64,000 nt of DNA, taken from Stappia sp. WLB 29 (GTDB taxonomy: Bacteria; Pseudomonadota; Alphaproteobacteria; Rhizobiales; Stappiaceae). Of this stretch, positions 18,066 through 58,999 are shown piece by piece; position 1 is the stretch's first letter; each line of letters starts with the position of its first letter. The translations under genes were made by a program, and so were the position numbers. Below the pieces are notes generated by a model, which saw nothing but the letters and a program-made list of their open reading frames with translations, did not search any database and was not told the DNA's origin. Location of the stretch: contig NZ_JALBGD010000002.1 in the NCBI RefSeq assembly GCF_023507705.1, positions 310,001 through 374,000 on the forward strand, read 5' to 3'.

Positions 18066-18142
18066 GGCGGAGTAGCTCAGTTGGTTAGAGCAGCGGAATC
18101 ATAATCCGCGTGTCGGGGGTTCGAGTCCCTCCTCCGCTACCA
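18066..18142 (+). tRNA. tRNA-Met (anticodon CAT)
   Basis: A complete cloverleaf can be drawn. The acceptor stem 18066-18072 pairs with 18132-18138 (one G-U at the end). The D arm is GCTC/GAGC, the anticodon stem GCGGA/TCCGC holds the loop ATCATAA with anticodon CAT, the T arm GGGGG/CCCTC encloses TTCGAGT, and a genomic CCA sits at 18140-18142. The sequence matches my memory of alphaproteobacterial elongator tRNA-Met; a CAT anticodon could also mean tRNA-Ile2 after lysidine modification. The 3' end is the attachment site for the downstream genomic island, which regenerates the tRNA end. Confidence 0.95.
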
Positions 18143-18146
18143 AAAA
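18130..18146 (+). repeat. attL core (tRNA 3' end), 17-bp direct repeat
   Basis: TCCTCCGCTACCAAAAA, covering the T-arm end, acceptor strand, discriminator and CCA of tRNA-Met plus four A residues, is repeated exactly at 47644-47660. Direct repeats of a tRNA 3' end flanking foreign DNA are the signature of tyrosine-integrase-mediated insertion. Confidence 0.85.
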
Positions 18147-19050: not shown

Positions 19051-21396
19051 ATGGATCAGATTGCATTCCGGATCAGCACACATCTCAAGGATGTCATCGG
19101 GCGTGACCTGGTGACGAATGAATTCGTCGCAATCTTCGAACTTGTGAAGAACTCATTCGATGCCAGGGCTACGCATGTTCGAATTACGTTCGATCTTGAG
19201 GCAGATCTGCTCACTATCGTAGACGATGGTAAGGGAATGTCTTCGTATGACGTAAGGGAAAAATGGCTTTTCGTTGCTTACTCTGCGAAGGCTGATGGTA
19301 CTGAAGATGATGATGCGAGCGACTATCGCGACCGAATCAGGATTCGAGGATATGCCGGAAGCAAGGGCATAGGCCGTTTCTCATGCGACACGCTTGGAAG
19401 GTCATTGGAATTATATTCGAGGACAGGAGAAGATATTTCCCCAGTAATCAAACTTGAAGTCGACTGGGAGGACTTTGAGCAAGACAGCAAGGAAGAGTTT
19501 GGTACGATCAAGGTGAGCCTTGATGAGGATAGTTCGTTCCCAAAATCTGACGGAGTTGTGCCACCTTCGCAACGTGGCACGATGCTCCGAATAAAGGGGC
19601 TGCGCCACGCATGGGGTGAGGATGCTGTTGCCAAACTACGTCGTTATCTGGCGAAGCTCATAGACCCGTTTGGAACCACGGAGGACGTCGAGGTGGCGAC
19701 AGTCCTTGTCGGTTCAGATCCGCACAATCGTGATTTAAACGGTCCTATTTCCAACGATATCGCGGATGTCTTAAAAGACAAGACGACGAGGATGGAAGTG
19801 GGGATATCCGAGGGCAGGATACACTCCTCCCTTATTGATCGGGGCCGAGTGATATATGAGATCTCTGAGGAAAGCCCATATGAAGACCTGACTGGGGCTA
19901 CGGTCCGGGGTGAGATTTTCTACCTCAATCGGAGCGCTAAACAGACCTTTTCCCAGCGGATGAAGGTGCCGGTGGTCGAATTTGGTAGCATTTTCCTCTT
20001 TCTCAATGGATTTAGGGTATTCCCCATTGGAGAGGAGTACGACGATAGCTTTGGCCTAAACCGCAGGAAGCAGCAGGGCTCCTCGCGTTACCTTGGGACA
20101 AGAGACGTCCTTGGACGTATCGACGTAAAAGCTCCTGCTCGCATGTTTCGTGAAGCGTCGAGCCGAGATGCTGGTTTGATTGAAGACGCGCACTGGCGCG
20201 AGCTTTACGACGCCGTCCGTAAGCACATGATTTTTAGGCTTGAGAGATATGTGGTCGGTGTTAATTGGAAGGATAAAGCTGACAGGGACCGGGATACTTC
20301 TGAAGGGCTTGAAACAGATCCAGCTCGAAGAAGAATTCTAGAGATCGTCGGTGGTTTTGCACGCGCAAAGGGTGTCGAGATTGTTCATTTCGATCACGAC
20401 ATTTTGGAATTGGCAGATGCCCGCGAAGAAGCCAGCCGGAAAGCTCTTGAAGATCTTTCGTCGATTGCTGAACGGGAGGGCGACTTGACCCTCCTCAAGC
20501 GCATCGAAGAAACCCGCGCGCAGATCGTTGAGCTTGAAAAATCGGAAGCAGCAGCCCGGGAAGAAGCCAATCGATATGCTCAGGAGCGAGCAAGGTCTGA
20601 TGCTAGGATTTCCCAGCTCGAGAAACAGGCCCATTTTCTGGCGTCGAGTCAAGATCTTGATGCTGAGCGCATTCGACTCCTTCTCCATCAAGTGAATATT
20701 TACTCGGGCCATATTGATGCAGGTACAGGAAGGGCTCTTGCAAACGCAGGCGGGATTCTTGGGCAACTCAATGATATTGAAAATTTGGATGCGGATGATC
20801 TTGAAGATTTAGCCGGGTCCCTTCGTCATGGACTTCGGCAAGTGCTTGATGATCTCTCCTACATCCGACTTGAGAACGACCGGCTCCAATCAATTTCTCG
20901 CTTTGCGCCAAATATCAGAGTGGATCTTGAAACCAGCGAAGTCAGGGGCGATCTCGTTGGGTTCTTGGAGGAATACTTTTCAGTGTTGCTCAACGATTCA
21001 GCGCAACGACCCCAGCCGACATTCGAAGCGAATAACTTGTCCCTAGAGCGCAAGTTTTCTCCTTTTGATCTCGCTGTGATCGTTGATAACTTGATTGACA
21101 ATGCTCGGAAGGCAAAGGCGCAAACAATCTTATTTAAAGCTGCACGTCCCAAGTCCGGGAAAGGCCTTGCCATAAGGGTGTCTGACGATGGGGTAGGCTT
21201 CAATCCTGAGCGTATGGACCCGCGGCGAATATTCGAGAAGCACTATTCTGCTACGGTTGGAGGCACCGGTCTTGGCCTATACCACGTCCGGCATGTTCTC
21301 GAAGAGATGGGGGGGTCTATCGAACTTGATCCTGATGGTGAGGAGAACAGGGCCGATTTTTTGATTACGATTGCGGAGGGGGCACGTGAACCTTGA
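19051..21396 (+). CDS. Two-headed GHKL ATPase: N-terminal Hsp90/MORC-like, C-terminal histidine-kinase-like
   Basis: This 781-residue protein has two ATPase modules. Residues 1-180 carry a GHKL fold of the Hsp90/MutL/MORC kind: N-box ELVKNSFDA (30-38), G1 VDDGKGM (57-63) and G2-like YAGSKGIGRFS near residue 100. A middle region (about 190-430) is followed by a coiled coil (about 455-540). A DHp-like helix with LLLHQVNIYSGH (His near 546) leads to a histidine-kinase catalytic domain: N-box IVDNLIDNARKA, G1 VSDDGVGF and G2 GGTGLGLYHV (about 670-770). There is no membrane segment, so it is cytosolic. The receiver-protein gene overlaps its last 11 bases, suggesting a phosphorelay pair. AT-rich relative to the chromosome. 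Confidence 0.8.
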   Translation: MDQIAFRISTHLKDVIGRDLVTNEFVAIFELVKNSFDARATHVRITFDLEADLLTIVDDGKGMSSYDVREKWLFVAYSAKADGTEDDDASDYRDRIRIRGYAGSKGIGRFSCDTLGRSLELYSRTGEDISPVIKLEVDWEDFEQDSKEEFGTIKVSLDEDSSFPKSDGVVPPSQRGTMLRIKGLRHAWGEDAVAKLRRYLAKLIDPFGTTEDVEVATVLVGSDPHNRDLNGPISNDIADVLKDKTTRMEVGISEGRIHSSLIDRGRVIYEISEESPYEDLTGATVRGEIFYLNRSAKQTFSQRMKVPVVEFGSIFLFLNGFRVFPIGEEYDDSFGLNRRKQQGSSRYLGTRDVLGRIDVKAPARMFREASSRDAGLIEDAHWRELYDAVRKHMIFRLERYVVGVNWKDKADRDRDTSEGLETDPARRRILEIVGGFARAKGVEIVHFDHDILELADAREEASRKALEDLSSIAEREGDLTLLKRIEETRAQIVELEKSEAAAREEANRYAQERARSDARISQLEKQAHFLASSQDLDAERIRLLLHQVNIYSGHIDAGTGRALANAGGILGQLNDIENLDADDLEDLAGSLRHGLRQVLDDLSYIRLENDRLQSISRFAPNIRVDLETSEVRGDLVGFLEEYFSVLLNDSAQRPQPTFEANNLSLERKFSPFDLAVIVDNLIDNARKAKAQTILFKAARPKSGKGLAIRVSDDGVGFNPERMDPRRIFEKHYSATVGGTGLGLYHVRHVLEEMGGSIELDPDGEENRADFLITIAEGAREP

Positions 21397-22321
21397 ATTT
21401 GGAATACTATGGTTCGAAGACGCTTTTAACCCGGGTGAAGTAGACAGCATTCGAGAAGCTGCTTCAAACTCAGGCTTTGAGGCAAGCATTCGTAATTCTG
21501 CAGACGGATCCAATCTTGCAGAGCTTGCGCAGGAGCAAGCAGTCTATCATCCTTTCGACCTGATCCTGCTTGATTTGAATTTGGCGGGTGGCGTAAAGGG
21601 GGATGCTTTGGCTCCCCAGGTTAGAAAGTTGTTTCGCTCAACACCTATTCTATTCTACAGTGGGAGCGTTGAAGAAGCTGATCTTCGCCGGCGAATGGCG
21701 GACGAGCGAATAGAAGGTATTTTCTGTGCTCACCGGCGCCGTTTTCTCGATAGGGCTGCTGAAATGATTTCAGATCTAGCCCAGTCACTTGACAGACTGT
21801 CCGGGATGCGTGGACTGGCAGTGGAAGTAGTCGCGGTAGCTGATTCACTTTGCAAGGACATAGTCCTAGCGATTAGTGCTCAGGGACTTGCTGACGGGGC
21901 GGACAAAAAGCTTTCAGCGCAGGTAGTGCAGTCCGCGCAGAGAATAGTTGAAGACTTTCCGAGACTCGATGGATTGACAGCTCAATTGGATCATAGGGCT
22001 GTCGATAGCATGAAGCTCTTCGGAACATTTCGTGATTTGCTTCGAGTGGCCATCCGGGAGAAAGAGGATGGAGAAGAAAAAGACCATCTCAGCGCGATGC
22101 AATTAGCCACGAAGAACTTTCGCGCGGAGGTTTTGGAAAAGCGAAATATTCTGGGGCATGCCACGGAATTTAAATCCAAGGATGGATGGGAGATCCGTAA
22201 CTCAAACGGAGACACCATCATGACTACACATGACTTTCCCGCGCTCAGGCGGCATTTCTTGTCCAATTTGAAGGCTATCAGGGAAATTCACCACCTTTTG
22301 GTCCCTCAGCAAGCTGAGTAG
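21386..22321 (+). CDS. Receiver-domain protein with HEPN-like C-terminus
   Basis: This 311-residue protein starts at GTG 21386, preceded by GGAGGGGG. Residues 4-125 look like a REC domain: acidic pocket WFED near residue 8, phospho-acceptor Asp63 in LILLDLNL, and the Thr/Ser and Lys-equivalent region PILFYSGS near residue 90. The C-terminal helical half ends with KRNILGHA; Arg253-Asn254 and His258 give the R-N-x3-H spacing typical of HEPN ribonucleases. The HEPN call is inference from a short motif in an all-helical region. It overlaps the kinase gene by 11 bases, and its 3' end overlaps the convergent methyltransferase gene by 120 bases. Confidence 0.7.
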   Translation: MNLEFGILWFEDAFNPGEVDSIREAASNSGFEASIRNSADGSNLAELAQEQAVYHPFDLILLDLNLAGGVKGDALAPQVRKLFRSTPILFYSGSVEEADLRRRMADERIEGIFCAHRRRFLDRAAEMISDLAQSLDRLSGMRGLAVEVVAVADSLCKDIVLAISAQGLADGADKKLSAQVVQSAQRIVEDFPRLDGLTAQLDHRAVDSMKLFGTFRDLLRVAIREKEDGEEKDHLSAMQLATKNFRAEVLEKRNILGHATEFKSKDGWEIRNSNGDTIMTTHDFPALRRHFLSNLKAIREIHHLLVPQQAE

Positions 22322-23503
22322 GATCTTCCCGAGAGCGCGCCCCAGCAAAGGGGGAACTGCGTTTCCTACTTGCGTATAGCGCGGGCAGGCGGTTCTTCGT
22401 GCCAGTCCGCCTGCGGTGTATCTGCCATGGAACGAAAACCAGTCTGGAAACGACTGAAGACGCGCATGTTCCCTTACCGTCATTGTCCGCGGTTCCGAGT
22501 AATGTATCAGGTCGTCCGGAAGGGTTGTAATTGTCGGAGACGGAGCATCCGGATCAAGCGGTGTCGTCGAGCGCTTTCGAATCCCCAAGCGTTCACGATC
22601 TAGTACCCCAATCACGCGCCCCTTCGGACAAGTGGCGAGTACTTCGCTCATCATCTTGACTTTTTCCGGGGAATGACGAGCGAGGCGCATATCGGTGAGG
22701 TTAGCGTTGGCCTCATCTCGCATCAAGCGCACGTAGGGAGTTGGATGTTCGGGCTCTTGATAGTCGAGCGCGCAAAACCCTGAGTGCCCCCATTCGGGGT
22801 CCGGTACCGTTATCTTTCCCCTCGTTTCGAGGTCATACAATGCTTCTTTTGCCGTTACTGGACTGGATCCAAGTCCCAGCCCCTCAAGAAACGATTTCCG
22901 GAAGACACGGAGGCGTTCAATAGGATTGATACCTGGAAGGCTATCCTTTGGCGCCCCGATAAGGATATAGCGCGGACGTCGTTGGGGAACCCCCCAATCT
23001 GAGGCCGCCAGCAGTGTGTCCCATGCTTCATATCCAAGCGCGGAGAGTCGACGACGAGCGTGGTCTGGATAGCAACCTCCATCTGAATGCGGCATGGAAG
23101 CAAAACCCTGAACGTTCTCCAGTAATACAAGCTTTGGTCTGATTGCTGCAACAAAGTCCATGTAGGCGTCGATCATCGAACTCCTTGGGTCCGATGGATC
23201 TCGCCGTCCATTTGTGCTGAAACCTTGACAAGGTGGCCCACCGGCGATGAGGTCAATCTCGCCTCGCAGCGCAACGAGTTCGTCCATATGGGTGTCGAGG
23301 AGTTGGCGAATGTCATGAGGCGATCTTGAGAGCCAACTAGGCCATCGGCTTTCGTAGTCAGTTCCGAGTATGAGATTGCGCTCGTACGTGGAGAAGGGAT
23401 CGGGGTGGCTTTCCACCGCGAAAAGGTGTTCGAAGCCTGCCTGGGACAATCCCAGCGAGAGGCCTCCGCAACCTGAAAAGAGATCAATCGCCACTGGCTT
23501 CAT
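22202..23503 (-). CDS. DNA (cytosine-5) methyltransferase
   Basis: This 433-residue C5-MTase has the motifs in canonical order: I DLFSGCGGLSLG (residues 6-17); IV with catalytic Cys in GGPPCQGFS (near 88); VI LLENVQGF (near 125); VIII PQRRPRYILIG (near 175); then a target recognition region; then IX/X with TQVGNAVPPLLGRALG (near 390). It modifies cytosine C5 in duplex DNA; the recognition site is not readable. No ordinary restriction endonuclease is adjacent. The partner genes are the GHKL kinase and receiver on the opposite strand, whose 3' end it overlaps by 120 bases. The last 20 or so residues are unusual for the family and may be an extension into the overlap. Confidence 0.9.
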   Translation of the reverse strand: MKPVAIDLFSGCGGLSLGLSQAGFEHLFAVESHPDPFSTYERNLILGTDYESRWPSWLSRSPHDIRQLLDTHMDELVALRGEIDLIAGGPPCQGFSTNGRRDPSDPRSSMIDAYMDFVAAIRPKLVLLENVQGFASMPHSDGGCYPDHARRRLSALGYEAWDTLLAASDWGVPQRRPRYILIGAPKDSLPGINPIERLRVFRKSFLEGLGLGSSPVTAKEALYDLETRGKITVPDPEWGHSGFCALDYQEPEHPTPYVRLMRDEANANLTDMRLARHSPEKVKMMSEVLATCPKGRVIGVLDRERLGIRKRSTTPLDPDAPSPTITTLPDDLIHYSEPRTMTVREHARLQSFPDWFSFHGRYTAGGLARRTACPRYTQVGNAVPPLLGRALGKILLSLLRDQKVVNFPDSLQIGQEMPPERGKVMCSHDGVSV

Positions 23504-25722: not shown

Positions 25723-25940
25723 CCAAACATCCGAAAGGCTGGGCCGTGAAGGCGCCTGGCGGGCAACGCGCGAGCAGCGTGCACACAACGCAACGCGCAG
25801 CCGAGCAGGCGGCCAAGCAGACCGTCGGCAATCTTGGTGGTGGCGAGGTTCGCATTCAGGGACGTGATGGCAGGTGGCGCGACTCCGACACGGTCGCACC
25901 GGGCAATGATCCTTGCCCACCGCGGGACAAGAAGCACTGA
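25719..25940 (+). pseudogene. DUF2188-like gene lacking a start codon
   Basis: Read in the frame ending at TGA 25938-25940, the sequence gives VTKHPKGWAVKAPGG, then HTTQRAAEQAAKQ and GRDGRWRDSDT, the hallmarks of DUF2188. The family N-terminus normally reads M-x-K-x-P-x-GWAVK. Here the codon at the expected start is GTA, and the nearby ATG (25717-25719) is shifted by two bases and runs straight into TAA. Either a two-base change destroyed the start, or translation begins at GTG 25746 and loses the conserved N-terminus (64 residues). It ends 16 bases before the TIR gene. Confidence 0.55.
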
Positions 25941-25956
25941 GAAAGGCAGGGCCGGC

Positions 25957-26892
25957 ATGAAGGCGTTCATCTCATACTCACATCGCGATACGGCTGCGCT
26001 CGAGCGCCTTCATACCCACTTGTCGATGCTCCGGCGTGAGGGACAAATCACTGAATGGTATGATCGCGAGATTCTCGCGGGGAGCGACCTCGACAGCGAG
26101 ATTACAGCGCAACTCGAATCAAGCGAGCTGTTCCTGCTCCTTGTCAGTCCCGATTTCCTCGCTTCGGACTATTGCTATGATCGCGAGCTGCGCCGCGCCC
26201 TGGAACGGCACGAAAGCGGCGAGGCCATCGTCGTTCCGATCATCGTTGAACCATGCGACTGGAAGTCCTCGCCCCTGAAGCAGTTGAAGGCGCTCCCGCG
26301 CGACGGTCATCCTGTCAGTGAATGGACGAATCAGAACAACGCGTTTCTCGATGTTGTCACCGAACTGCGGCGGGCCGTTGCGCGCGAAGATAGGGCCGAT
26401 GACCGGGAGGACGAGCCTGCGCCGCCTGCTCGTGCCGCAAGTTCACGGTACCGTATCAAACGGGAGTTCGACGAAATCGACCGCAGCGACTTCCGGTCGA
26501 ACGCATTCGAGATCATGCGGCGCTATTTTGAGCGGGCGGTTGCCGAAGTAGATCAGATTGAAGGCGTCCGTGCACGCTATGTATCAACCGGCCCCCTCAG
26601 CTTCACCTGCACCCTTATCAACCGGGCGATCGATCATGGCACGGCCCACATCACCGTACACGGCCAGAGCGGTGCGATGGGTTTTTCCGACATCTTCTAT
26701 TCTTTTCAGGAGAACGCCCTGCCCAACACCGCCAATGGCGGCTTCACGATCGAGAGCGACAACTACGAGCTTTTCCTAAAATCGGGGCCGTTTGGTTTTG
26801 AAACGAGCAGTGAGCGGCTGACCCCGGAGCAGGCGTCGGCTCTTCTGTGGACCAATTTTCTGGATCAGGCGGGGGTGTCCCATGACGAATAG
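25957..26892 (+). CDS. TIR-domain protein with unknown C-terminal domain
   Basis: This 311-residue protein starts at the ATG at 25957 after AAAGGCAGGG. Residues 1-145 form a TIR_2-type domain: KAFISYSHRD at the start, then the loop WYDREILAG, then ELFLLLVSPDFLASDYCYDREL; the Glu of CYDREL fits the NADase catalytic Glu position. Residues 165-311 form a compact alpha/beta domain of no known family that could be the sensor or binding surface. Bacterial TIR proteins usually act as NAD-consuming effectors of phage defence. The stop overlaps the start of the zinc-ribbon gene by 11 bases. Confidence 0.78.
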   Translation: MKAFISYSHRDTAALERLHTHLSMLRREGQITEWYDREILAGSDLDSEITAQLESSELFLLLVSPDFLASDYCYDRELRRALERHESGEAIVVPIIVEPCDWKSSPLKQLKALPRDGHPVSEWTNQNNAFLDVVTELRRAVAREDRADDREDEPAPPARAASSRYRIKREFDEIDRSDFRSNAFEIMRRYFERAVAEVDQIEGVRARYVSTGPLSFTCTLINRAIDHGTAHITVHGQSGAMGFSDIFYSFQENALPNTANGGFTIESDNYELFLKSGPFGFETSSERLTPEQASALLWTNFLDQAGVSHDE

Positions 26893-27046
26893 GATCCGCT
26901 TTCGGTGCATGAACTGCGGCAAGCGTTTCGAGGAAGACGTTCTCGACGAGGACGAAAAGCGCGAGGCGCGCCGCCGCGATCAGCCGACATATCCAATCCA
27001 CTGCCCAGAATGCCAGCGAACAGACATCCGACGGGGATGGGAGTGA
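26882..27046 (+). CDS. Zinc-ribbon micro-protein
   Basis: This 54-residue protein is encoded in a frame overlapping the TIR stop (ATG at 26882). It has two Cys-x2-Cys knuckles, CMNC at residues 9-12 and CPEC near residues 43-46, separated by a charged helix (FEEDVLDEDEKREARRRD). This is a typical zinc ribbon that may bind nucleic acid or act as an adaptor. The 11-base overlap with the TIR gene implies translational coupling and a shared function. Confidence 0.7.
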   Translation: MTNRIRFRCMNCGKRFEEDVLDEDEKREARRRDQPTYPIHCPECQRTDIRRGWE

Positions 27047-27092
27047 ACGCTATACAGGCTGAAATCCGAAAAATCAGACAGGAGGATTGGAA

Positions 27093-27974
27093 ATGGCGCG
27101 CCGCGTAACGCCGTCGCAGTTCAAAAGCATGATGCGACAGGCTCAGCAGAAGCAGAAACGGGCCATCGATGACCTTAATCGCGGCATCCGAGAGTATAAC
27201 CGTAAGGTCAAGCAGGAGGTTGACCGCTACAACCGCGAGGTCAGGGCGCACAACTCCAGGGTCCGCGCGAACCGGCAGCGGCTCAAGAACGAAATTGCGC
27301 GCCTTAACCGCCAGGCGAACACCACACGCTATGTGACCTACCGGGTGTCGGTCGACTCCATGCAGGCGGCGTATGAGCGTCTTGAAAGCGCAGCCGATCA
27401 GGGGCGCTTCGACGAGCGCTACAATGAACTGCTGGACCTGTCAGAGCGTGAGGCCGCGAATAACGCCGGTCTGATGAACGCGCTGCTGGAAGACAGCGCC
27501 ATCGCTGACAACGCACCGGCACCCAATGAGCCCGAAAGTCCGCTCACGCCGATCCTTCAACGTCTATCCGCAGATCTTTGCGACAGGTGGCGCGGCGCGC
27601 TCTACTCGCTCAGTCCGCAAAACCCCGACGCGGCCCGCCATTTCTGCACCAGTGCGCGCGAGATCATCACACGCATCCTCGACATCCACGCCCCCAATGA
27701 GGCGGTCGAACAAGCAATTCCCGACTGTGACCGGACACAGCAGGGAACGCCGACCAGACGGGCAAAGATCAAATACATTCTTCACCGGAGCGGTATGGCG
27801 GGGGACGAACTGGAGTCTTTTGTCGACAGCGACATCGAGAATGTCGTCGCGCTCTTCCAGACCTTCAACCAGGGTACACATGGCGAGGCCGGAAAATTCA
27901 GCTTCAACAAGCTGCAGGCGATCCGCGTGCGCGTTGAAGACGGGATTCTCTACCTCTCACGACTCATTCACTAA
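27093..27974 (+). CDS. Coiled-coil protein with predicted pPIWI-associated nuclease-like C-terminus
   Basis: This 293-residue protein starts at ATG 27093, with AGGAGG seven bases upstream. Residues 1-75 are strongly basic and helical (MRQAQQKQKRAIDDLNRGI...), probably a coiled coil that could contact nucleic acid. The C-terminal 150 residues (LSPQNPDAARHFCTSAREII ... FNQGTHGEAGKFSF) resemble the predicted nuclease domains reported beside pPIWI-RE genes, with the NPD-x-R/H...S-x-RE and NxG-x-H pattern. That similarity is from memory and needs a profile search. The gene lies between the TIR/zinc-ribbon genes and the short-Argonaute operon, all on one strand. Confidence 0.6.
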   Translation: MARRVTPSQFKSMMRQAQQKQKRAIDDLNRGIREYNRKVKQEVDRYNREVRAHNSRVRANRQRLKNEIARLNRQANTTRYVTYRVSVDSMQAAYERLESAADQGRFDERYNELLDLSEREAANNAGLMNALLEDSAIADNAPAPNEPESPLTPILQRLSADLCDRWRGALYSLSPQNPDAARHFCTSAREIITRILDIHAPNEAVEQAIPDCDRTQQGTPTRRAKIKYILHRSGMAGDELESFVDSDIENVVALFQTFNQGTHGEAGKFSFNKLQAIRVRVEDGILYLSRLIH

Positions 27975-28097
27975 CCCCCACGCGGCGCGGGAGAAAGGTT
28001 CCACCGGACGTTTCAGGTTCAGAATAATCCACAGTGTCGCGGAGCAAATCCTCCGCTATCGTGGCAAATGTTCTCTGATTGTTCTATGATTATCATC

Positions 28098-29420
28098 ATG
28101 TCGAAGATCCTTACGCCAAACCAGATGCTCGGTCAGATCGGAGAACTCGCTGTCGGACAGCGATTTCTTCACATCGGCTTTCAGTTTGACGGCCGGTCCC
28201 GCCTTGAAGCCGGGATCGACGGTATCGCCGAAGTGATGGATGAAGGCCGCCCGCTGGCGCGAATGATCGCCGTGCAGGTCAAGGCAACGGCAGAAGGGAA
28301 ATACACGTCCGAAGACGATACGGGGTTCAGCTATCTGCTCAAGCCGAAAGACCTGGATTACTGGCGCGGATCGAACCTGCCCGTGATCATCGTCCTCTAT
28401 CGAAAATCGGACGAGAGCTTCTACTGGAAGGAAGTCCCGAGCGGAGTCACAGCGGGTGAGCGCCGACTACGGTTCGATAAGGTGCAGGATGTTTTAGACC
28501 GCAATGCGGTCGACCGTCTGGCCGCCCTTACCGTGCCTAAGGCAGGATTCGGCTACTACGTTCCGCCGCTTGGCGGAGGCGAGAGCGCTCTTGTCAATTT
28601 GCTGCCGATTACCCTGCCCCCCGAGATATTCGTTGCTTCGACACCGTATACGGGGCCGAAGGCGACGTCGTTGCTTCTGGAAGGTGACGGACCCGCTAGG
28701 TTCGACTGGGTCATTAAGGGCGGCTCGTTCTGGTCGTTTCACGATCCACGCAATTCCGCGTGCCGCGACATTGTCGATGCCGATCAGGTTGAGGCGATCG
28801 AGACGAGCTTTTTGGCTTTCCACGAGGACCTCGACGAGCAGCACAATTTCTCTTTCCTGCTACGGCAGACGCTCAAGCACCAGGTTGGGGAAGACCTGAA
28901 CTGGGAGAAGGAGCGCAAGCTGCTGTATTTCCGGGCGGAAGAGAAAAATGTGCCACGCCGGTTCCATTACGAGTCGACGCAGAAAAAGACACATGCCGAC
29001 GTCGTGAACGTCATTACCAGCAAGAAGGAAGAGGGGCTTGTTGCCTACGTGCGCCACCACGCATTCGCGCCGCGCTTCGAACTGCTCGACGATCAGTGGT
29101 TCTTGATCGTTACCCCCACCTACTATTTTACGACAGACGGCTTCACACCGCACTCTTACCCGCAGGCTTTGCTCGCGGGAAAGAAGCGCCTGGATAACAG
29201 CGCCTCGCTGCGCGGTCAGGTGATCATGTGGCATCGCTTCCTTACCCAGAAGCAAAGCGCAGGCGATGATCTCTTTGGGCGTCATGCGGTTCAGGAGCCT
29301 TGCCTGAAATTCGCTCCGCCGCCGCAGATCGCGCTTGATACACGTGTGCCGGAAGATGTCTGGGGTGCGCCGAAGAAACGGCCCGAAGAACCAGCCGAGC
29401 AGGAAAGGTTCGCGGTCTGA
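28098..29420 (+). CDS. DREN-APAZ protein: DUF4365 nuclease fused to APAZ (SPARDA effector)
   Basis: This 440-residue protein uses the ATG at 28098. Residues 1-160 are a DUF4365 restriction-endonuclease-like domain with Glu16, Asp41 in GIDGIAEV and the Q-x-K motif VQVKAT (Gln60, Lys62), so the nuclease centre looks intact. The C-terminal half is an APAZ domain: [20 protein letters not shown], then [10 protein letters not shown], then [10 protein letters not shown]. In short-Argonaute systems of the SPARDA type this protein pairs with the PIWI subunit; recognition of foreign DNA by a guide releases a non-specific DNA/RNA nuclease that kills or arrests the cell. Its stop overlaps the Argonaute start by one base. 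Confidence 0.88.
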
Positions 29421-30877
29421 TGGAATTTGAGAGCAAGATATTCGAAGAACCCGAGCTGGAATTCGGCGACCAGCACCACGGCCTCGATCCGCGCCGCGGA
29501 CTCGTTGAGGCGGGGCCGCTGCAGCCGCCCCTGGGGGAGCTGATCAGGGTCGGAGTTGTCGGAAGCACGAAAACCGTCGAGAGCACGCAGAAGTACTTCT
29601 CGGCAGTTGCGACGGGGATCAAAGGCAAAGGCGAGAGGCATCCCAATTTGCACCCGGATTTTCCCGGGCTTGGCAATCAGAACCCCTTTCGCTGCCGGTT
29701 TGAGATCTCGGAAAATGCTACGGCCGCGCTGTCCCAGAGCAAGATCGATAAGATCGTCAAGGAGCCGCACCATCAGAAGGCGGTCGAGATGGCAGTCGAG
29801 GAAATATACTCACTGCTGCAGACGCTGGATGACAGCGGGGACAGGCCTGATGTTGCGATCGTTGCCTTGCCAGTCGCCCTTATCGAGCGTGTCTGGAATG
29901 CAAAGGTCGACTCAAAAAGCACGACTGAGAAGGAAGACAGCAGCGGCTCAGATGCCCCGAATTTCCGGGGGATGCTCAAAGCCCGGACGATGGGCCTGAA
30001 CTTTCCGATCCAGATCGTCTGGGAAGATGTCATCGACGAGAAGGCGGCAATCCCCCGGAAGATCAAGGAGAGCAAAGACCGCGAGATCCAGGACGAGGCA
30101 GACAGGAGCTGGAACCTCTTCACCACTCTCTATTTTAAAGGCAGCGGCCGCATCCCGTGGCGCCGCCCGCCACGGGAGGGGGAATTTGCCGCTTGCTATG
30201 TAGGGATCAGCTTCTATCGCGAAGCTGGCGGCCAGCAGCTTTTTACCAGCGCGGCGCAAATGTTCGATGAGCGCGGGCGCGGGTTCATTCTCAAGGGGAA
30301 GAGGGCGCAAACCGAAAGCCGCGGCCGTCACCCCTATATGACCGAAAATGATGCGTACGAGCTCATCGAGCAGGTGCTCGCAGCCTACAAGAATCATCAC
30401 AAGCACTATCCGGCACGGGTCATTGTGCTCAAAACCTCCCGTTTCCGGGAGGATGAGGCCGACGGCATTCTGCGCGCGCTGGAAGAAGCGGGCTCCGAGC
30501 TTCGCGATCTGGTCTGGGTTCAGGAGTCGTACGCAGCAAAGATCCTGCGTGATGGAAACTATCCGGTCCTGCGAGGCACATTCGTGAACCTGGCGGGCAA
30601 AGGCCTGCTCTATACGAATGGCAGCATACCCTACTATGGCACCTACCCGGGGCTGTATGATCCGCGTCCGCTGCTGCTTTGTCCGCACAAAAGCTGCGAT
30701 AGCACGATTGCCCAGATCGCTGAGGAAGTCTTCTCGTTGACGAAAATCAATTGGAATTCAACGCAGATGAACCAGCGCCTTCCGATCCCTATCCGGGCAG
30801 CGCGTAAGGTGGGGGAGGTCCTGAAATATATGGCTGAAGGCCAAACAGTAAGTTCAGATTACCGCAGATATATATAG
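29420..30877 (+). CDS. Short prokaryotic Argonaute (MID-PIWI), catalytically inactive
   Basis: This 485-residue protein lacks N and PAZ domains, as short Argonautes do. The PIWI domain is recognised by [12 protein letters not shown] near residue 260, [15 protein letters not shown] near 305, [14 protein letters not shown] near 340, [14 protein letters not shown] near 390 and the C-terminal LTKINWNST near 440. The catalytic acidic residues are missing: Ser occupies the first Asp place (VGIS) and Thr-Ser the later one (LKTS), so it can bind a guide and target but not slice. With the DREN-APAZ partner just upstream (TGATG junction) it forms a SPARDA-type system. Confidence 0.88.
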
Positions 30878-31035: not shown

Positions 31036-32592
31036 CTATTCCGAAGCGTATTTGCTGTCAAAATCATCGAAGGCATCTGCGACGATTGCCTCAATCCGAC
31101 TGACCTCGTCGTCCCGCAGTTTTTCAAACTCGCCCGTTCGGCGGCGTTTGCTGAGCGAGCCGCCGTTCTGACGGATGTGCATGATGAGGTCCTGCGCCAT
31201 GCGGTCGGGCATTTCGACCAGATTCATGACGGCCGTCAGAGCCTCGTCGCGGCACTTGAGATAGTCGATCTCGCGCGGCAGATCGACCTCTACGGTTCGC
31301 TGCACGCAGCTATAGAGGAACTCAGCCTCCTCGGTGCAGTCAAAATAGCGATAAAGGTCCGCCGTGTCGTTGGTGACCTCGACATTGTGACTGGGCAGCG
31401 CGCGCCAGTCGATGAACCCCATCAAGGGACCGGAGTGCCGCTTCAGGGTAGCGGCATAGTCGTCGATGCGATCCAACATGACTGCCGAGACGGGAAACAC
31501 CATGCCCGGCGGGGTGTATTTACGCTCGGCAAGCACGTGGTGGATGAGACAGCGGTGCAGGCGCCCGTTGCCGTCAGCCAGCGGGTGCACATAGACAAAC
31601 CCGAATGCGATCGCAGCGGCCTGCAGGACCGGATCGACGTCTGAGGTCCGCAGCCTGTTGTTGCACTCATTGAGGCCGGTCATGATGTCGAGAACATCCT
31701 GAGGACGGGCACCGATGAACTCGGGCAGCGGATCATGGTTGTGATCCCGCTCGCCCAGAAACACGCCGTCGCTGCGATATCCGATTTCGGTGAAACGGTC
31801 ATCGCCGATCAGGATGCGGTGCAGGCGGTAGATCTCGGACTGGTTTAGCGGACGCTTGCCGGCCTCGAGAACGGCGCGTCCCCAGCGCTCAAGCCGATTG
31901 GCTGGCACGCGCTCCCCTTCAATCTCGAAGCTGGCACGGCTGTCCGCGAGGAGGAGAAAGCTCGCGGCCCGGGAAACGACGTGGGCGCCTGTTCGCCCTA
32001 TCGTCTCCTGGGCCTTCCTAGAAAGATCGAGGGCCAGAAATGCCTCCAGCTTTTCTGTGCGCCTGATCACCGGACAGAGCGCGCCGGTGCCAAGCAGATT
32101 GTTGCGCACCCGATGGCGCAGAGACAGGGACGCGGGGCAGGTGAAATAGGCTTCGGGATCGAGTGCGTCGACGGCGGTAACTGTGGGGGCGTCGTCGATA
32201 TCCAGCCGCTTGCCGCTCAGGGTTTCGTAAAAGAACCATGCGCGCCGCGTCGCCGCGCCGGTCGGTGTCCGCTGGATGAAGTCTATGAGGTTCTGTTCCG
32301 GCAACGCATCGAGGATGCGCTTGAGCACCAGAAGATCGATCGGCTCATGACGCAGGGCAAAGCCGAGATGCCCATCTAGGGTGTCTTCCGGTTGATACCG
32401 CTTGTCATAGACCTCCCAGATGCCCTCCCCCCGGCGATTGCCGCGCACATGCCGTTCGGAAATACAGGCGGGGTTTCTCACGGGCGCCTTCACGTCGAGT
32501 GCTTGGACGAGAGCGGCCCAACCCGCGAGCCGCGTGCCCTCTGGAACGGATTCGTTCTGAAAATGGGCAGATTTCCCGACGTCGAGTTTCAT
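31036..32592 (-). CDS. Fic-domain protein (class II, with inhibitory motif)
   Basis: This 518-residue protein has the Fic core motif VHPLADGNGRLHR near residue 331 (canonical H-x-F-x-D/E-GNGR-x2-R with Leu in place of Phe), containing the catalytic His and phosphate-binding Asn-Gly-Arg. About 110 residues upstream lies SFEIEG, matching the S/T-x3-E-G/N inhibitory helix motif, so this is probably a self-inhibited class II Fic enzyme that transfers AMP or a related nucleotide group to a protein. The N-terminal 200 residues are unlike standard short Fic proteins. It is transcribed alone on the minus strand, convergent with the Argonaute gene. Confidence 0.85.
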   Translation of the reverse strand: MKLDVGKSAHFQNESVPEGTRLAGWAALVQALDVKAPVRNPACISERHVRGNRRGEGIWEVYDKRYQPEDTLDGHLGFALRHEPIDLLVLKRILDALPEQNLIDFIQRTPTGAATRRAWFFYETLSGKRLDIDDAPTVTAVDALDPEAYFTCPASLSLRHRVRNNLLGTGALCPVIRRTEKLEAFLALDLSRKAQETIGRTGAHVVSRAASFLLLADSRASFEIEGERVPANRLERWGRAVLEAGKRPLNQSEIYRLHRILIGDDRFTEIGYRSDGVFLGERDHNHDPLPEFIGARPQDVLDIMTGLNECNNRLRTSDVDPVLQAAAIAFGFVYVHPLADGNGRLHRCLIHHVLAERKYTPPGMVFPVSAVMLDRIDDYAATLKRHSGPLMGFIDWRALPSHNVEVTNDTADLYRYFDCTEEAEFLYSCVQRTVEVDLPREIDYLKCRDEALTAVMNLVEMPDRMAQDLIMHIRQNGGSLSKRRRTGEFEKLRDDEVSRIEAIVADAFDDFDSKYASE

Positions 32593-32769
32593 GTCGGCTT
32601 TCTCTCATGATTGTCGAATATCGATCATATGTCGCGAGTCTGTCGAAAGGAGTTTACAGTCCAAGGATTGAAAATCAAACACCAATGTCGAAAATCGTTC
32701 ACGATAAGATATGAGTGTCGATAACAAGACGAAACACACCCGCAGGCCACTGACCAGAATGGAGCCAAA

Positions 32770-34137
32770 ATGCCGTCAAAAGAGCTCTGGCGCGAGGAAC
32801 TGTTCGCGCTGGTTTGGGAGAAGCCGACGCAGGAGGTGGCCAGGGAACTTGGCGTTTCGGATGTCGCAATCGCTAAGCTATGCGCCCGTCTTCAGGTTCC
32901 CAAACCGCCGCGAGGCTACTGGGCCAGGGTTCAATCCGGGCAGACGCCGAAACGTCCGCCCCTTGCGGCGTTCCGAGAAGAGGTCGATCGCAAACGCCGG
33001 GAAACGGCACGTGCGAAAGCAGTTGTAACATTATCAAAACTGCAACAGCAATTCTACGAGGCTGCGCTTAGCGAGTTGATCGCTCGTGGTGTGGATGTGG
33101 GTGGGACCGAGACACGCAGGCCCAGGCTGCCCGAACTCCACCCCGACCCGATCTCGCCGTACAGATACTGCTCCTCATTCAAAACCGCGGGCATCACTGG
33201 GTCAAAGAGGGTCAAGTCGCCGCCAACTGGAGCCATTCGGTTCAAGCCAGTGCGGCCAGTCTGGTTGGAAAGCTCCTGCCACTCGCACGACCACAGCTCT
33301 TGATGTTTGAAAGCGATCGCGAGCCCAGGCGGCACACGGCAAATGGCCCTGCGGTCTTCGTGCGTCTGACGGCACATCTGCAGGAGCGGATTGCCTCTCT
33401 TGTGCGCGTCGTCCGGGACCAGAAATTGGACCACGTCGTCATGCCGCTGATCGCCGCGGATCACGCGTGGTCGGCCCGGTATCTTTATGCGCCGGCAGCG
33501 CATGTCTTCCTGGACAGCACCTTGTGTGTTTCGGCCACCGAAGTCTGGGTGGAAAGCGCTCGGCGAGCGTGGCGCGACGAGGATCCGCCCGAACGGGTCG
33601 CCACCGGCAGACTCAAGCTGCGCGACATTATGCCGATCGATTACATGCCGGTTCGGGAAATCGAGCTGCCTCCAGGCGTTTCCCGTGCCACCGTGAAACC
33701 CTACCGAGAGCGCCTGCAGGGATTGCTCGAGGCCGATCGCGTACATGAGATGATATCTCGCGCTACATACGCGATTGAACGGCAGGTCCCAGACGACGAG
33801 CTGTTGCTCGCGGACCGAATATGGTTCGGAAGAGAGCGGCCCTTTCGGTCGGCGCGGGAAGCTTTGGCGCGTCTCGAAGATGAACTGGCCGACTGGGAGA
33901 CGGAGTTGGAAGCCGAGCGTTGCGCCCTCGCCCAATCGATACTGGGCATTGAAATGGGAGATATCGTGGCTGCGGAAAACCGCGGGCGCTTCCTACGTCT
34001 TTCCGTCACGGGAATTACCCCTCTACGCGAGCGACAAAGGCGCCACGTTCATCATCAGTGGCACGCGGTTTCGCAAGGATGGCACATTGGGAAAACTGCA
34101 GGACACGTTGAGTCTGCATTTCGAGGCCGACAGATGA
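32770..34137 (+). pseudogene. Frameshifted hypothetical gene (at least two frameshifts)
   Basis: Three frames must be joined to give one protein. The first (32770 onward) reads ELWREELFALVWEKPTQEVARELGVSDVAIAKLC, a DNA-binding-like start found in conserved hypothetical proteins. From about 33168 the plausible protein continues one frame over (QNRGHHWVKEGQVAANWS ... RLTAHLQERIASL). Near 34010 it shifts again to ELPLYASDKGATFIISGTRF and stops at 34137. No intact ORF covers the whole. The frames keep protein-like composition, so the breaks are recent, or sequencing errors are possible. Confidence 0.65.
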
Positions 34138-34397
34138 CTGGCATATTCGCACAAGCTTATCGACGCTACCATCCGCAGATGGCCCGCAAATGGCTCCTTC
34201 GCGCGCCCATTTCCGTCATCTACGACGCCGGTGGCCGTTCCCGTTACCGGCTACCAACCGAGACAGTTTTGGATTGGAGGCATTCTGGCCGCCACTAGTA
34301 CCCACATGCCGTACTACATTTGTTGGTGACTTCAGCGAAGTATTGCAGTCCGGAACCAAACATTGTCGCGTGCAGGGCTGCTGGGTTATACTATCCT

Positions 34398-37300
34398 ATG
34401 CAGTTGCGCGACGACTCACTCCTGCTTAGCGCGTCCGACCTGATCGGGCACCTGAACTGCCGCCATTTGACCGGTCTCGACATAGAGGTCGCGCGCGGCA
34501 CACTTCCCAAACCCGCCTTCTGGGACCCGCTCCTCCAGATCCTCTGGGAGCGCGGCGCACGCCACGAACGGGGCTATATGGAGCACCTGAAGGCGCAAGG
34601 ATTCGACGTCACCGTTATCGACGGCGTCGGGGTCGATGACGACGCGGTCGCCCAGACCCGCACGGCGATGATCGAAGGCCATCCTATCATCGTGCAGGGC
34701 GCGTTTCGGCTGAATGGCTGGGTCGGTCGTTCCGACATTCTCCGGCGCATCGACACGCCGAGCGATCTGGGAGCCTGGTCCTATGAGGTGATTGACACCA
34801 AGCTCGCCCGCGAGACCAAAGGCGGCACCGTCCTGCAACTCTGCCTTTACGCCGAACTCGTGGCCTCGGTGCAGGGGCTGACGCCAGCATATTCCTACGT
34901 CGTCGCCCCCTGGTCCGACTATGAGCCGCAGGTCTTCCGCATGGATGACTATGCGGCCTATTACCGTCGGGTACGGGACGGGCTCGCCCGCGCGATCGAC
35001 GAGCATGGAGACTCGGAGATTTATCCCGACCCGAAAACGCATTGCGATATCTGCCGCTGGCAGGATCGTTGCGACCAGCGGCGGCGCGCCGACGATCATC
35101 TCTCCCTCGTGGCCGGTATCAGCAAGGTCCAGATCGACGAACTCAAGCGCCAGGGCATCGAGACCGCCGCCAACCTCGCGGTCATGCCCTTACCCCTTGC
35201 CTGGAAGCCCACCCGCGGTGCGGCCCATTCCTACGAGCGCGTCCGCGAACAGGCGCGCATCCAGGTCGAAGGCCGCGCGGCAGGTGCCATGCTCCACGAG
35301 TTACTCCCTGTGGTGCCGGGGTTCGGGCTTGCGAGCTTGCCGGCGCCGTCCGCCGGGGATGTCTTCTTCGACCTCGAAGGCGATCCCTTCGCAGGCGAAG
35401 GCGGGCTCGAATATCTGTTCGGCTACAGCTTCAAGGATGCGGACGACACCGCCAGCTACACCTGCGACTGGGCATTCTCCCGCGAAGAGGAGAAGGCGAA
35501 TTTCGAGCGCTTCATCGACTTCGTCATGGCGCGTCTCGAACAGCACCCCGATCTGCACATCTACCACTTCGCGCCCTACGAGCCGGCAGCGCTCAAGCGG
35601 CTGATGGGCCGCTACGCGAGCCGCGAGGAGGAGATCGACTTCCTGCTGCGCTCCAAGCGCTTCGTCGATCTTTACGGCGTTGTTCGGAACGGCTTGCGGG
35701 CGAGCGTCGAGAGCTACTCGATCAAGAAGCTCGAATCCCTTTACGGCTTCACGCGCGACACAAAGCTGTCCGACGCCAACATGGCGCTCGCCAAAGTCCA
35801 GGCCTGCCTAGAGCTTGGCGATCTCGAATTCATCGACGAGGCCGACCGGGCGGTGGTCGCTGGCTATAACCGCGACGACTGCGTTTCGACCTGGCAGCTG
35901 CGCGACTGGCTCGAGACCCGGCGCGATGATTTGGTCGCAGGCGGTACGGTCGTGCCACGCCCGGAGGCACCGGAAGGTGCGCCAAGTGAAAAGCTTAGCG
36001 AATGGCAGGAGCAGATCAATGCGCTGATCGCGCAGCTGAAGGGCGACGTGCCTCCCAATCCCGCGGACCGGACGCCTGAGCAGCATGCGCGCTGGCTGCT
36101 TGCCCATTCGCTCGACTGGCATCGCCGGGAGCAGAAGGCGCTGTGGTGGGAGTATTTCAGGCTGTCCGACTTAGCCGCAGAGGATCTGCTCGAAGAGAGG
36201 GCGGGCCTGTCCGGCCTTTCCTTCATCGGTGTGACCGGCGGCACCGCCAAGGCGCCGATCCACCGCTACGGCTTCCCGCCGCAGGAAACGGAACTGCGCG
36301 GCGGGGAAGGCTTGCACAATCTGGGCGGCGCGAAGCTTGGTTCGGTCGAGGCAATTTCGCTCGAAGAGCGCTGGGTTGACATCAAAAAGCGGATGGACAC
36401 CGCCGGCCTGCATTCCGGCGCCGTGTTTGCGCACAAGGTTGTAAGAGCAGAGGTCCTTGCGGAAGCACTCGTCCGCATTGGCACCTATGTCGCCGCAAAC
36501 GGCATGGAAGGCGACGGTCCATATAGGGCCGCCCGCGATCTTCTCATGCGGATGCCACCGCGGATCGGCGACCAGCCGATCCAGCAGGATGGCGAACCGG
36601 CGCTCGATGCCGCGCTCCGCATCGCACCCTTTCTGCAGCCGGGCGTCTTTCCCATTCAAGGCCCGCCCGGTGCCGGCAAGACCCACACCGGCGCCCGCAT
36701 GATCTGCGTCCTCGTTCAGGCCGGAAAGACCGTCGGCGTGACCGCCAACAGCCACAAGGTCATCCGCAATCTTCTGAATGCTGTCGTGACGGCGGCCGAC
36801 GAGATGGGCATCGACGTCCAGTGCATGCAGAAGCCTGCCGACAAAGAGGACGGCGTTCACCGCCTGCGCTTCACGACCAAGGCGCCCGAACTGCTCGGAG
36901 CCATCGGCCACGGCGTTCACGTCGGCGGCGGCACAGCGTGGCTCTGGGCCTCGCCCGACGCCGCCGAAGCTGTCGATGTCCTCTTTATCGACGAAGCGGC
37001 GCAGATGGCGCTTGCCAATGTGCTGGCCGTCTCTCAGGCGGCATCCACTATCGTGCTGCTCGGTGATCCGCAACAACTCGACCAACCCATGCAGGGCAGC
37101 CATCCCGAAGGCACCGACGTCTCATCGCTCCATCACATCCTCGGCGGTGATCAAACCATTGCCGATGACCACGGGCTGTTTCTCGCCGAGACGTGGCGGC
37201 TTCACCCGGACATCTGCGCCTATACCTCCGAGCTGTTCTACGGTGGGCGCCTTCACCCACGGCCAGGGCTGGAAGTGCAGGACATAAGATCGAGAAGCCG

Positions 37301-37793: not shown

Positions 37794-38175
37794 GGCGGCT
37801 CGCACCGGCTGCGAGTTTCACGCGAGGTCCCCTTCGGTGCGATTACCCTTCTGTCCGAAGACACAGGGAGAACGTGTTAGTGAATATGCCGGATGCAACG
37901 AACTAACGCAACGTCCTGAACAGTGACCTGACCAACGCGAATTGGCCAGGCCAGGTCGAGGCGGGATCGAAGGCCCATATCTCCTTGGGCCAACAGCTGA
38001 TGAGCGCATCACGATGATCTGCATGGGACCTGCCCGATTATGGCGCAAGTCCGGACATATTCGATACGCTGTACGGCGCGGACTCGCTGGATGCATAGCT
38101 GGCAGCAATGTAGGCTATGCGACACGTGGGAGCATGGGTCATGTTGCAAAGGCTTAATCTGATAGGGAGGGGTGC
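37794..38175. other. Intergenic region before the giant ATPase gene
   Basis: These 382 bases lie between the nuclease-helicase stop and the TTG start of the sacsin-like gene. Small ORFs on either strand lack credible starts or composition. No repeats or RNA genes are recognised; it presumably contains the promoter of the downstream gene. Confidence 0.4.
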
Positions 38176-58900: not shown

Positions 58901-58995
58901 CAAGCCGCCTATGCGTCGGCCAAGGCCACCATCATTCAGTTCTCGCGCGTTGTGGCGGTGGAGTCGCCCGAACGCATGCCTTCCGCTAGTGCATC
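58896..58995 (+). pseudogene. Short-chain dehydrogenase fragment
   Basis: The sequence AAYASAKATIIQFSRVVAVE matches the active-site helix of short-chain dehydrogenases (Y-x3-K followed by the hydrophobic helix). Only about 30 residues remain, joined directly to the broken amidohydrolase, indicating deletion of the intervening DNA. Confidence 0.55.
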
Positions 58996-58999
58996 TTGC

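What the first reader, a model, noticed from the sequence alone, without database searches (positions are those of the whole stretch)
19051..23503. Candidate new defence module: dual GHKL/histidine kinase, receiver protein with HEPN-like motif, and C5 methyltransferase
Sequence shows a cytosolic protein with an Hsp90/MORC-like ATPase at the N-terminus and a histidine-kinase ATPase at the C-terminus. An 11-base overlap couples it to a receiver protein (Asp63) whose helical C-terminus ends in R253-N-I-L-G-H258, the R-N-x3-H spacing of HEPN RNases. A cytosine methyltransferase converges on them. Established knowledge: prokaryotic GHKL/MORC-like ATPases occur in restriction-like operons, and HEPN domains are common abortive-infection RNases. 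Inference: a phosphorelay that senses unmodified or invading DNA through the GHKL head and switches on a receiver-gated RNase, with the methyltransferase marking self. I know of no described system with this exact composition.
Basis: partly seen in the sequence, partly recalled or inferred. Interest (0 to 1): 0.8.

Follow-up and report, generated by a model that had tools for sequence, protein, structure and literature searches.

The report
Kinase-gated RNase with DNA methylase
Three neighbouring bacterial genes (a double-ATPase kinase, a signal receiver fused to a probable RNA-cutting domain, and a DNA-cytosine methylase) recur together across several bacterial phyla and look like a restriction-like immune system that would cut RNA instead of DNA.

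Summary
Gene A has an N-terminal paraMORC-type ATPase and a C-terminal histidine-kinase ATPase. Gene B overlaps A by 11 bases and has receiver Asp63 and R253-N-I-L-G-H258. Gene C is a convergent C5 methyltransferase. A profile scan gave 80 further loci from several phyla. In 77 full-length B proteins D63, R253 and H258 are invariant. In 82 kinases H546 is the only invariant His. HEPN families lead the Pfam hits of B C-termini, all sub-threshold; no fold could be predicted, so HEPN is likely, not proven.

The claim of novelty must shrink. PMC8011034 (2021) described GHKL-kinase + response-regulator-like + C5-methylase loci. That HEF_HK/Response_reg_2 system is a sister: longer regulators (567-721 aa), RNx3H in 1 of 8, and HEF_HK, which the window kinase lacks. 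What I did not find described is the receiver-HEPN output without a widely recurring endonuclease gene. Best reading: a phosphorelay-gated RNase paired with a protective methylase. Function is untested. New variant of a known kind.

The parts
18066..18142 (+). tRNA-Met (cat); the point at which synteny with same-genus genomes ends, i.e. the island edge
   Evidence: ARAGORN; blastn against 5 same-genus loci: in 5 of 5 the long match ends at 18142-18144; GC per 2 kb falls from 0.667 to 0.51
19051..21396 (+). Gene A: kinase with N-terminal HATPase_c_3 (paraMORC-type), conserved middle region, His546 and C-terminal HATPase_c
   Evidence: Pfam; conserved ATPase residues, and H546 in 82 of 82; no HEF_HK match
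20686..20688 (+). His546 codon, candidate phosphoacceptor (LLLHQ)
   Evidence: only His invariant in 82 of 82 aligned kinases; codon position computed from the 19051 start
21386..22321 (+). Gene B: receiver (about 1-119) + helical HEPN-like domain (about 120-311)
21572..21574 (+). Asp63 codon, receiver phosphoacceptor
   Evidence: 77 of 77
22142..22159 (+). R253-N-I-L-G-H258, Rx4H motif
   Evidence: R and H 77 of 77, N 73 of 77
22202..23503 (-). Gene C: C5-cytosine DNA methyltransferase, convergent with A-B
   Evidence: PF00145 E 3e-49; PADLOC Type II MTase E 4.7e-76; a relative within 3.5 kb of A in 77 of 82 loci

Best explanation
A three-gene restriction-like immune module whose killing step is probably RNA cleavage. 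Gene A is a sensor kinase: its N-terminal paraMORC-type ATPase reads a cue of invasion and its C-terminal kinase core autophosphorylates His546 (inferred). The phosphate passes to Asp63 of B (inferred from invariant residues and gene overlap). This releases or dimerises the C-terminal HEPN-like domain, which cleaves RNA through R253/N254/H258 and stops growth (inferred). The C5 methyltransferase keeps the module quiet by marking host DNA or by being the thing monitored (inferred from co-occurrence only). Shown: gene content, order, conservation of the active-site residues, island context. Not shown: HEPN fold, phosphotransfer, RNase activity, anti-phage effect, methylation-dependence.
For: Linkage: B next to A in 80 of 82 loci, C within 3.5 kb of A in 77 of 82. 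Of the 5 others, 3 have a C relative about 10 kb away, L051 has one about 2.9 kb beyond B, L079 is a short contig. In IMG/VR: 8 of 8 loci have B with RNx[LFM][AG]H, 7 of 8 have C; in the eighth the contig ends with B. HEPN: R253 and H258 77 of 77, N254 73 of 77, acidic residue at 153 in 77 of 77, which fits the published signature (PMC3710099 section 6). Abi_2 (4 of 73), HEPN_RiboL-PSP (3) and HEPN_Swt1 (3) head the Pfam list for B C-termini, all sub-threshold. Of 10 members rescanned, 3 had such hits: L070 RiboL-PSP 34-136 and Swt1 107-139, both over its motif at 127-132; L094 Swt1 121-142 over its motif at 134-139; L058 Abi_2 19-81, not over the motif. Both ATPase sites are conserved. No endonuclease family recurs widely in the flanks; Vsr-like, in 14 of 82, is the commonest neighbour. 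Island with short pAgo, TIR, Fic and TmtA-like genes.
Against: No fold prediction. Profile-profile matches to HEPN families are weak: best hhalign probability 9.4% (11.6% with both profiles reversed), and masking the six motif columns removes most of the signal. The B C-terminal profile finds no HEPN structure in the PDB. The window B itself has no HEPN hit, and 7 of 10 rescanned relatives had none. The position I take for the canonical receiver Lys is Arg (74 of 77). In the nearest relative L008 the kinase is 80% identical but the methylase only 49%, against 65% and 60% in L019, so the kinase need not read the methylase's target site. No B was found in 2 of 82 loci (L085, L097).
Confidence: 0.6

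Rival explanations
1. A regulatory two-component pair that tunes expression or activity of a neighbouring restriction-modification system, the B C-terminus being a non-catalytic RNA- or protein-binding helical domain. This is the speculation of PMC8011034 for its sister system.
For: Same composition in the sister family, where the authors speculate about control of R-M systems. Some HEPN domains are probably non-catalytic (PMC3710099).
Against: R, H and the acidic residue are invariant across very diverged proteins, as expected of an active site. No restriction endonuclease recurs widely in the flanks to be regulated. No DNA-binding domain was found in the window B or listed for the 73 relatives.
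Confidence: 0.2
2. A true DNA restriction system: A (or A+B) is itself the endonuclease, like the BbrUII/HgiDII GHKL restriction enzymes, with C as cognate methylase.
For: Best NCBIfam match of A is BbrUII/HgiDII restriction enzyme, E 1.3e-23; a PADLOC REase_II profile also matches the N-terminus, E 6.4e-9. A C5 methylase accompanies A in 77 of 82 loci.
Against: The NCBIfam match covers only the N-terminal ATPase (residues 14-210 to 11-193 of 659; 83 bits against a cut-off of 550). The rest of A includes a histidine-kinase ATPase, and no nuclease family was found in it or in 6 relatives.
Confidence: 0.12
3. A toxin-antitoxin-like selfish element: A-B is a toxin held in check by C's methylation or by A's phosphatase activity, giving stabilisation of the island rather than phage defence.
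For: Patchy occurrence: own plus 2 others with near-full-length matches among 385 class genomes, none in 13 other same-genus genomes. Found in a tRNA island and in predicted viral contigs. R-M systems can act this way (PMC8011034 discussion).
Against: Not exclusive of defence; sits among defence genes in the window.
Confidence: 0.15

Closest known systems
HEF_HK / Response_reg_2 two-component-like system (PF19191/PF19192; Bellieny-Rabelo et al. 2021, PMC8011034)
   Same: Kinase with N-terminal HATPase_c_3 and C-terminal HATPase_c, adjacent receiver protein, C5 methylase, frequent Vsr; linked by the authors to paraMORCs and R-M loci.
   Different: Window-type kinases are 757-871 aa (82 aligned), His mostly followed by Gln in the rows printed, no HEF_HK in 7 of 7 scanned; regulators 288-349 aa with Rx4H. 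Control PF19192 loci: kinases of 993-1078 aa in the 7 of 8 where my A query found one, HEF_HK in 2 of 2 scanned, regulators of 567-721 aa; of 8 regulators one (L181) has RNx3H and two more (L178, L184) have R[DQH]x3H.
paraMORC-HEPN (Ymh family) fusions in R-M loci (Anantharaman et al. 2013, PMC3710099)
   Same: GHKL paraMORC ATPase coupled to a HEPN RNase in R-M neighbourhoods.
   Different: There the HEPN is fused to the ATPase; here a kinase core and a separate receiver protein intervene.
Detocs (defensive two-component system; glossary of PMC11249213; more is recalled)
   Same: Three-gene defence system named for two-component signalling, with an effector that acts inside the host cell.
   Different: Best-described effector is an ATP-cleaving PNP. 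No methylase and no paraMORC head (recalled).
DS-11, CBS-HEPN (DefensePredictor, PMC13092281)
   Same: A regulatory domain on one chain with a HEPN nuclease; its catalytic HEPN residues were needed for defence.
   Different: One protein with a CBS domain; no kinase, receiver or methylase.
HATPase/REC predicted system in Fig. 6F of PMC13092281
   Same: The legend lists HATPase and REC among domains of predicted, unvalidated defence systems.
   Different: Figure not seen; whether it is this system cannot be told.
BbrUII/HgiDII GHKL restriction enzymes (NF050001)
   Same: N-terminal GHKL ATPase similarity.
   Different: Match stops at residue 210 of A.

Membership tests
HEPN RNase superfamily | Rx4-6H motif | tested here: met
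   R253-x4-H258, 77 of 77; definition from PMC3710099 section 6
HEPN RNase superfamily | polar residue (mostly N, D or H) just after R | tested here: met
   N 73, H 1, I 3 of 77
HEPN RNase superfamily | second conserved acidic residue, typically upstream and in an Ex3[KR] motif (in many families) | tested here: met
   residue 153 is D in 70 and E in 7 of 77; the x3[KR] part was not counted
HEPN RNase superfamily | significant match to a HEPN profile | tested here: inconclusive
   6 HEPN-type families among the 25 of 103 Pfam families shown, all sub-threshold; hhalign weak, though stronger than three HEPN-versus-Abi_2 pairings run the same way
HEPN RNase superfamily | all-alpha four-helix fold | not testable with these tools
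   structure prediction switched off; crude propensity averages give 68% helix and 11% strand for residues 120-311
HEPN RNase superfamily | RNase activity | not testable with these tools
   -
Response regulator receiver | phosphoacceptor Asp, beta-1 acidic residue, Thr/Ser | tested here: met
   D63 77 of 77; D12 68 of 77 (N in 9); S92 76 of 77, T in 1
Response regulator receiver | conserved Lys at the end of beta-5 | tested here: not met
   Arg117 in 74 of 77, Lys in 1 at the aligned column; taking that column as the beta-5 position is my reading
Histidine kinase | N, G1, F, G2 boxes and a phosphoacceptor His | tested here: met
   N680, N684, D712, G714, G716, F728, G738, G740, G742 each kept in at least 79 of 82; H546 82 of 82. 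Box names are my assignment; DHp fold not tested
HEF_HK / Response_reg_2 system | PF19191 in the kinase | tested here: not met
   no hit in the window kinase (E up to 1) or in 6 of 6 relatives (E up to 0.1); 2 of 2 control kinases hit
HEF_HK / Response_reg_2 system | PF19192 in the regulator | tested here: not met
   no hit in the window B (E up to 1); hits in 9 of 73 family members, best E 1.7e-4, so a distant kinship is possible
Type II restriction-modification | cognate DNA endonuclease | tested here: inconclusive
   blastp clustering of 725 ORFs within 6 kb of the cores of 82 loci: Vsr-like in 14, no other nuclease-like cluster in more than 4 (DndH-like) among the 25 clusters printed; diverged endonucleases would not cluster
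Anti-phage defence system | experimental protection against phage | not testable with these tools
   -

The most novel reading that the evidence does not exclude
A restriction-modification analogue in which the restriction step is RNA cleavage: a C5 methylase marks the cell's DNA, a double-ATPase paraMORC histidine kinase detects absence of the mark (or a blocked methylase), and a phosphorylated receiver switches on a HEPN RNase. DNA modification would thus be wired to RNA destruction through a two-component phosphorelay, with no DNA cutter.
Probability: 0.33. Interest if true: 0.85.

Novelty: new variant of a known kind. Interest (0 to 1): 0.62.

Why it matters
If right, it gives a class of kinase-plus-methylase loci an output: an RNase under receiver control. 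It would join three themes so far described apart (paraMORC ATPases, two-component signalling, methylase-guarded defence) in a compact three-gene unit found in several phyla. It makes direct tests possible: invariant residues H546, D63, R253 and H258 are named.

Tried and rejected
hhalign against HEPN alignments built here was underpowered: 9 RiboL-PSP, 2 MAE_28990, 6 then 9 Abi_2 and 19 then 13 MCP control sequences, out of 24, 5, 25 and 25 loci, because my extraction lost the rest. Results: B C-terminus versus RiboL-PSP E 0.0045 and 0.0034, RiboL-PSP+MAE_28990 0.0049, MAE_28990 0.0076 (both calls), Abi_2 0.033 and 0.061, MCP control 0.43 and 0.44. HEPN families versus Abi_2 as yardstick 0.14, 0.49, 0.17. 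Controls with one side reversed 0.16-0.82. Masking the motif columns took RiboL-PSP to 0.17 and 0.25, MAE_28990 to 0.043, Abi_2 to 0.29 and 0.15. PDB profile search with the B C-terminus gave 17 weak matches (best E 0.055), none HEPN by its molecule name. B as a single query in genome contigs found nothing. B has no match in plasmids or phages, nor two relatives of B in plasmids, nor an Aeromonas A-B in E. coli genomes by DNA, nor A in plasmids at E 1e-40 or phages at E 1e-20. The methylase query did hit 4 plasmids, so that search works. The B-family profile matched only 1 of 8 control Response_reg_2 regulators (L183, E 6.4e-5) plus one other protein in L184. Considered and rejected: that A is a HEF_HK member; that A is a HgiDII-type nuclease; that the tRNA 3' end is duplicated in the window as an att site (one match only).

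Literature: 10 searches gave no description of a receiver-HEPN protein with a GHKL kinase and methylase in what I read. The library lacks most subscription papers and all preprints, and listed papers were not all opened. PMC8011034: abstract, introduction, results and discussion read, not methods or supplements. PMC3710099: abstract, section 6 and passages. PMC13092281: legends and passages. PMC12839542, PMC8195603 and PMC11249213: passages. Detocs beyond the glossary is recalled.
Full report
What is there. Gene A (19051-21396 +) encodes 781 aa with HATPase_c_3 at 25-153 and HATPase_c at 673-761. The ORF finder's TTG start at 21371 gives five extra residues, but two relatives with ATG starts, L008 and L028, keep the same 11-base overlap. 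Gene C (22202-23503 -) is a C5 methyltransferase. B has no hit in PADLOC-DB at E up to 0.1; three relatives of B also have none at E up to 0.001.

Context. A tRNA-Met ends at 18142 and GC drops from 0.667 to 0.51 per 2 kb there. The gene before it is present in 13 of 14 same-genus genomes, own included. In the 5 same-genus stretches I fetched, the long match to the window ends at the tRNA 3' end in 5 of 5; three of them show one further short match each, 46-48 bases, elsewhere. So the module lies at the start of a variable island. Further in are a TIR protein, a pPIWI-associated nuclease, a REase-APAZ-type partner with a short Argonaute, a Fic protein (PADLOC PDC-S24) and a TmtA relative. The window genome appears to be alphaproteobacterial: a genome of the same class (G153:C57) matches a Desertibaculum contig by length and gene coordinates, and that genus is placed in Alphaproteobacteria.

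Relatives. B alone is rare and fast-evolving. Among 61 relatives only the window's own genome has a full match; three others match the receiver part at E 2.7e-5 to 2.2e-4. Among 385 class genomes two others had near-full-length matches, 62% over 1-310 and 27% over 25-270 (G361, G153), and one matched the receiver part only. Both loci have the same three genes in the same layout. Using the alignment of three A proteins, a scan of one genome each of 84,980 species gave 238 relatives in 534 stretches, the best 80 kept. By their record titles they come from Proteobacteria, Bacteroidota, Acidobacteriota, Verrucomicrobia, Firmicutes, Planctomycetota, Patescibacteria and others. Counting these 80, L008 and the window (82 loci; L009 dropped as the same stretch as L054), B follows A in 80: 77 full-length, L022 interrupted, L079 and L088 partial at contig ends. 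L085 and L097 had no B hit. A C relative lies within 3.5 kb of A in 77 of 82. The other five: L029, L032 and L066 have one about 10 kb away (distance computed by me, taking its contigs to be the records), L051 has one about 2.9 kb beyond B, L079 is a 6.5-kb contig. Of 73 loci with all three full genes, C is convergent downstream in 48, upstream on the same strand in 22, and otherwise placed in 3. These loci were chosen by similarity to A, so they sample this subfamily and not GHKL kinases at large.

Receiver and kinase. In 77 aligned B proteins D63, G72, Y91, R142, G143, R253 and H258 are invariant. D12 (68 of 77) and S92 (76 of 77) are conserved, but the position I take for the canonical Lys is Arg117 in 74 of 77. 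In 82 aligned A proteins both ATPase sites keep their motif residues, and H546 is the only histidine conserved in all. It lies in an LxHHQ/LLLHQ stretch in most printed rows, upstream of the kinase ATPase, as expected of a phosphoacceptor; the DHp fold is not shown.

Is the B C-terminus HEPN? For: the published signature (PMC3710099 section 6) is Rx4-6H, a polar residue after R, and in many families an acidic residue upstream. Here R and H are 77 of 77, N 73 of 77, acidic 153 77 of 77. Scanning the C-terminal halves of 73 members against Pfam, the three families hit by most members were Abi_2 (4), HEPN_RiboL-PSP (3) and HEPN_Swt1 (3), with HEPN_MAE_28990 (2), HEPN_LA2681 (1) and Ribonuc_2-5A (1) also among the 25 of 103 families shown. 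All are sub-threshold, and unrelated families fill the rest of the list. Of 10 members rescanned with coordinates, 3 had HEPN-type hits: in L070 RiboL-PSP (34-136) and Swt1 (107-139) cover the motif at 127-132; in L094 Swt1 (121-142) covers the motif at 134-139; in L058 Abi_2 (19-81) lies at the RG helix, away from the motif. Against: profile-profile scores are weak and hang mostly on the six motif columns, a solved-structure search found nothing relevant, the window protein itself has no HEPN hit, and no fold could be predicted. My estimate that it is a HEPN domain is about 0.85.

Relation to what is published. [quoted passage not shown] I tested membership. PF19191 is absent from the window kinase and 6 of 6 relatives but present in 2 of 2 control kinases. 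PF19192 is absent from the window B and hits 9 of 73 family members, best E 1.7e-4. Eight control PF19192 loci (from 8 of 299 genomes) all have a C5 methylase; 7 of 8 gave a kinase hit, 993-1078 aa; the 8 regulator ORFs are 567-721 aa, of which one (L181) has RNx3H and two more have R[DQH]x3H. The two systems look like sister designs with different outputs. PMC3710099 had already noted Ymh-HEPN fused to paraMORC ATPases in R-M loci. The DefensePredictor paper validated a CBS-HEPN protein and lists HATPase and REC domains in a figure of predicted systems; I could not see the figure. Ten literature searches turned up no receiver-HEPN plus GHKL-kinase plus methylase description.

Mechanism. No endonuclease family recurs widely beside the module: the commonest shared neighbour cluster is Vsr-like (14 of 82), then integrase-like by my reading (9), a second methylase cluster (7) and others down to the DndH-like cluster (4). 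A and B diverge together (correlation of pairwise identities 0.90), C less so (0.71 with A, 0.66 with B; 73 loci, relatedness not corrected). In the closest relative L008 the kinase is 80% identical while the methylase is only 49%, whereas in L019 the values are 65% and 60%: the methylase may have been exchanged. This argues that the kinase does not read a site specific to its methylase, unless both methylases share a target. In the methylase alignment parts of the segment between the PPCQGF-type core and the C-terminal motifs are conserved across loci, which would be compatible with one shared target; this was judged by eye. Methylases 41-44% identical to C also occur on 4 plasmids; in the three annotated ones they sit beside a DUF87 protein or a large ATP-binding protein, and no A relative was found on plasmids at E 1e-40. 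I commit to phosphorelay-gated RNA cleavage with the methylase as guard, at 0.6, every biochemical step being inferred.

Noticed in passing
window 25834-30877: TIR protein (PADLOC ThsB1 profile, E 3e-72), pPIWI-associated nuclease, REase-APAZ-type protein and short prokaryotic Argonaute in a row: a short-pAgo system with an adjacent TIR gene.
   Followed up: partly
window 18066-18142: tRNA-Met is an island hot spot: the long match to 5 of 5 same-genus stretches fetched ends at its 3' end.
   Followed up: yes
window 31036-42603: Fic protein matching PADLOC PDC-S24 (E 1.4e-187), a protein with RNase_H_2, PDDEXK and helicase-type AAA domains (34320-37793), and a full-length TmtA match (38176-42603).
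   Followed up: no
L190:2795-2842 and window 58963-59010: A 48-base, 98% identical stretch lies just behind the tRNA-Met in a same-genus genome and 41 kb from it in the window: perhaps the trace of an older island end.
   Followed up: partly
L022:9298-11443: In Gluconacetobacter diazotrophicus the B gene is in two pieces with a transposase-like ORF between them (IS3-type by my reading), while A and C remain.
   Followed up: no
L032:833-6331 (same cluster in L029, L066, L071): A protein of about 1830 aa, DndH-like at its C-terminus in L032, lies near A-B, with a Vsr-like gene in L029 and L032 and the methylase about 10 kb from A-B in L029, L032 and L066: possibly a larger variant of the module.
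   Followed up: partly
L199, L200, L201: Methylases 41-44% identical to C sit on plasmids beside DUF87 or large ATP-binding proteins, with no A-B annotated.
   Followed up: partly
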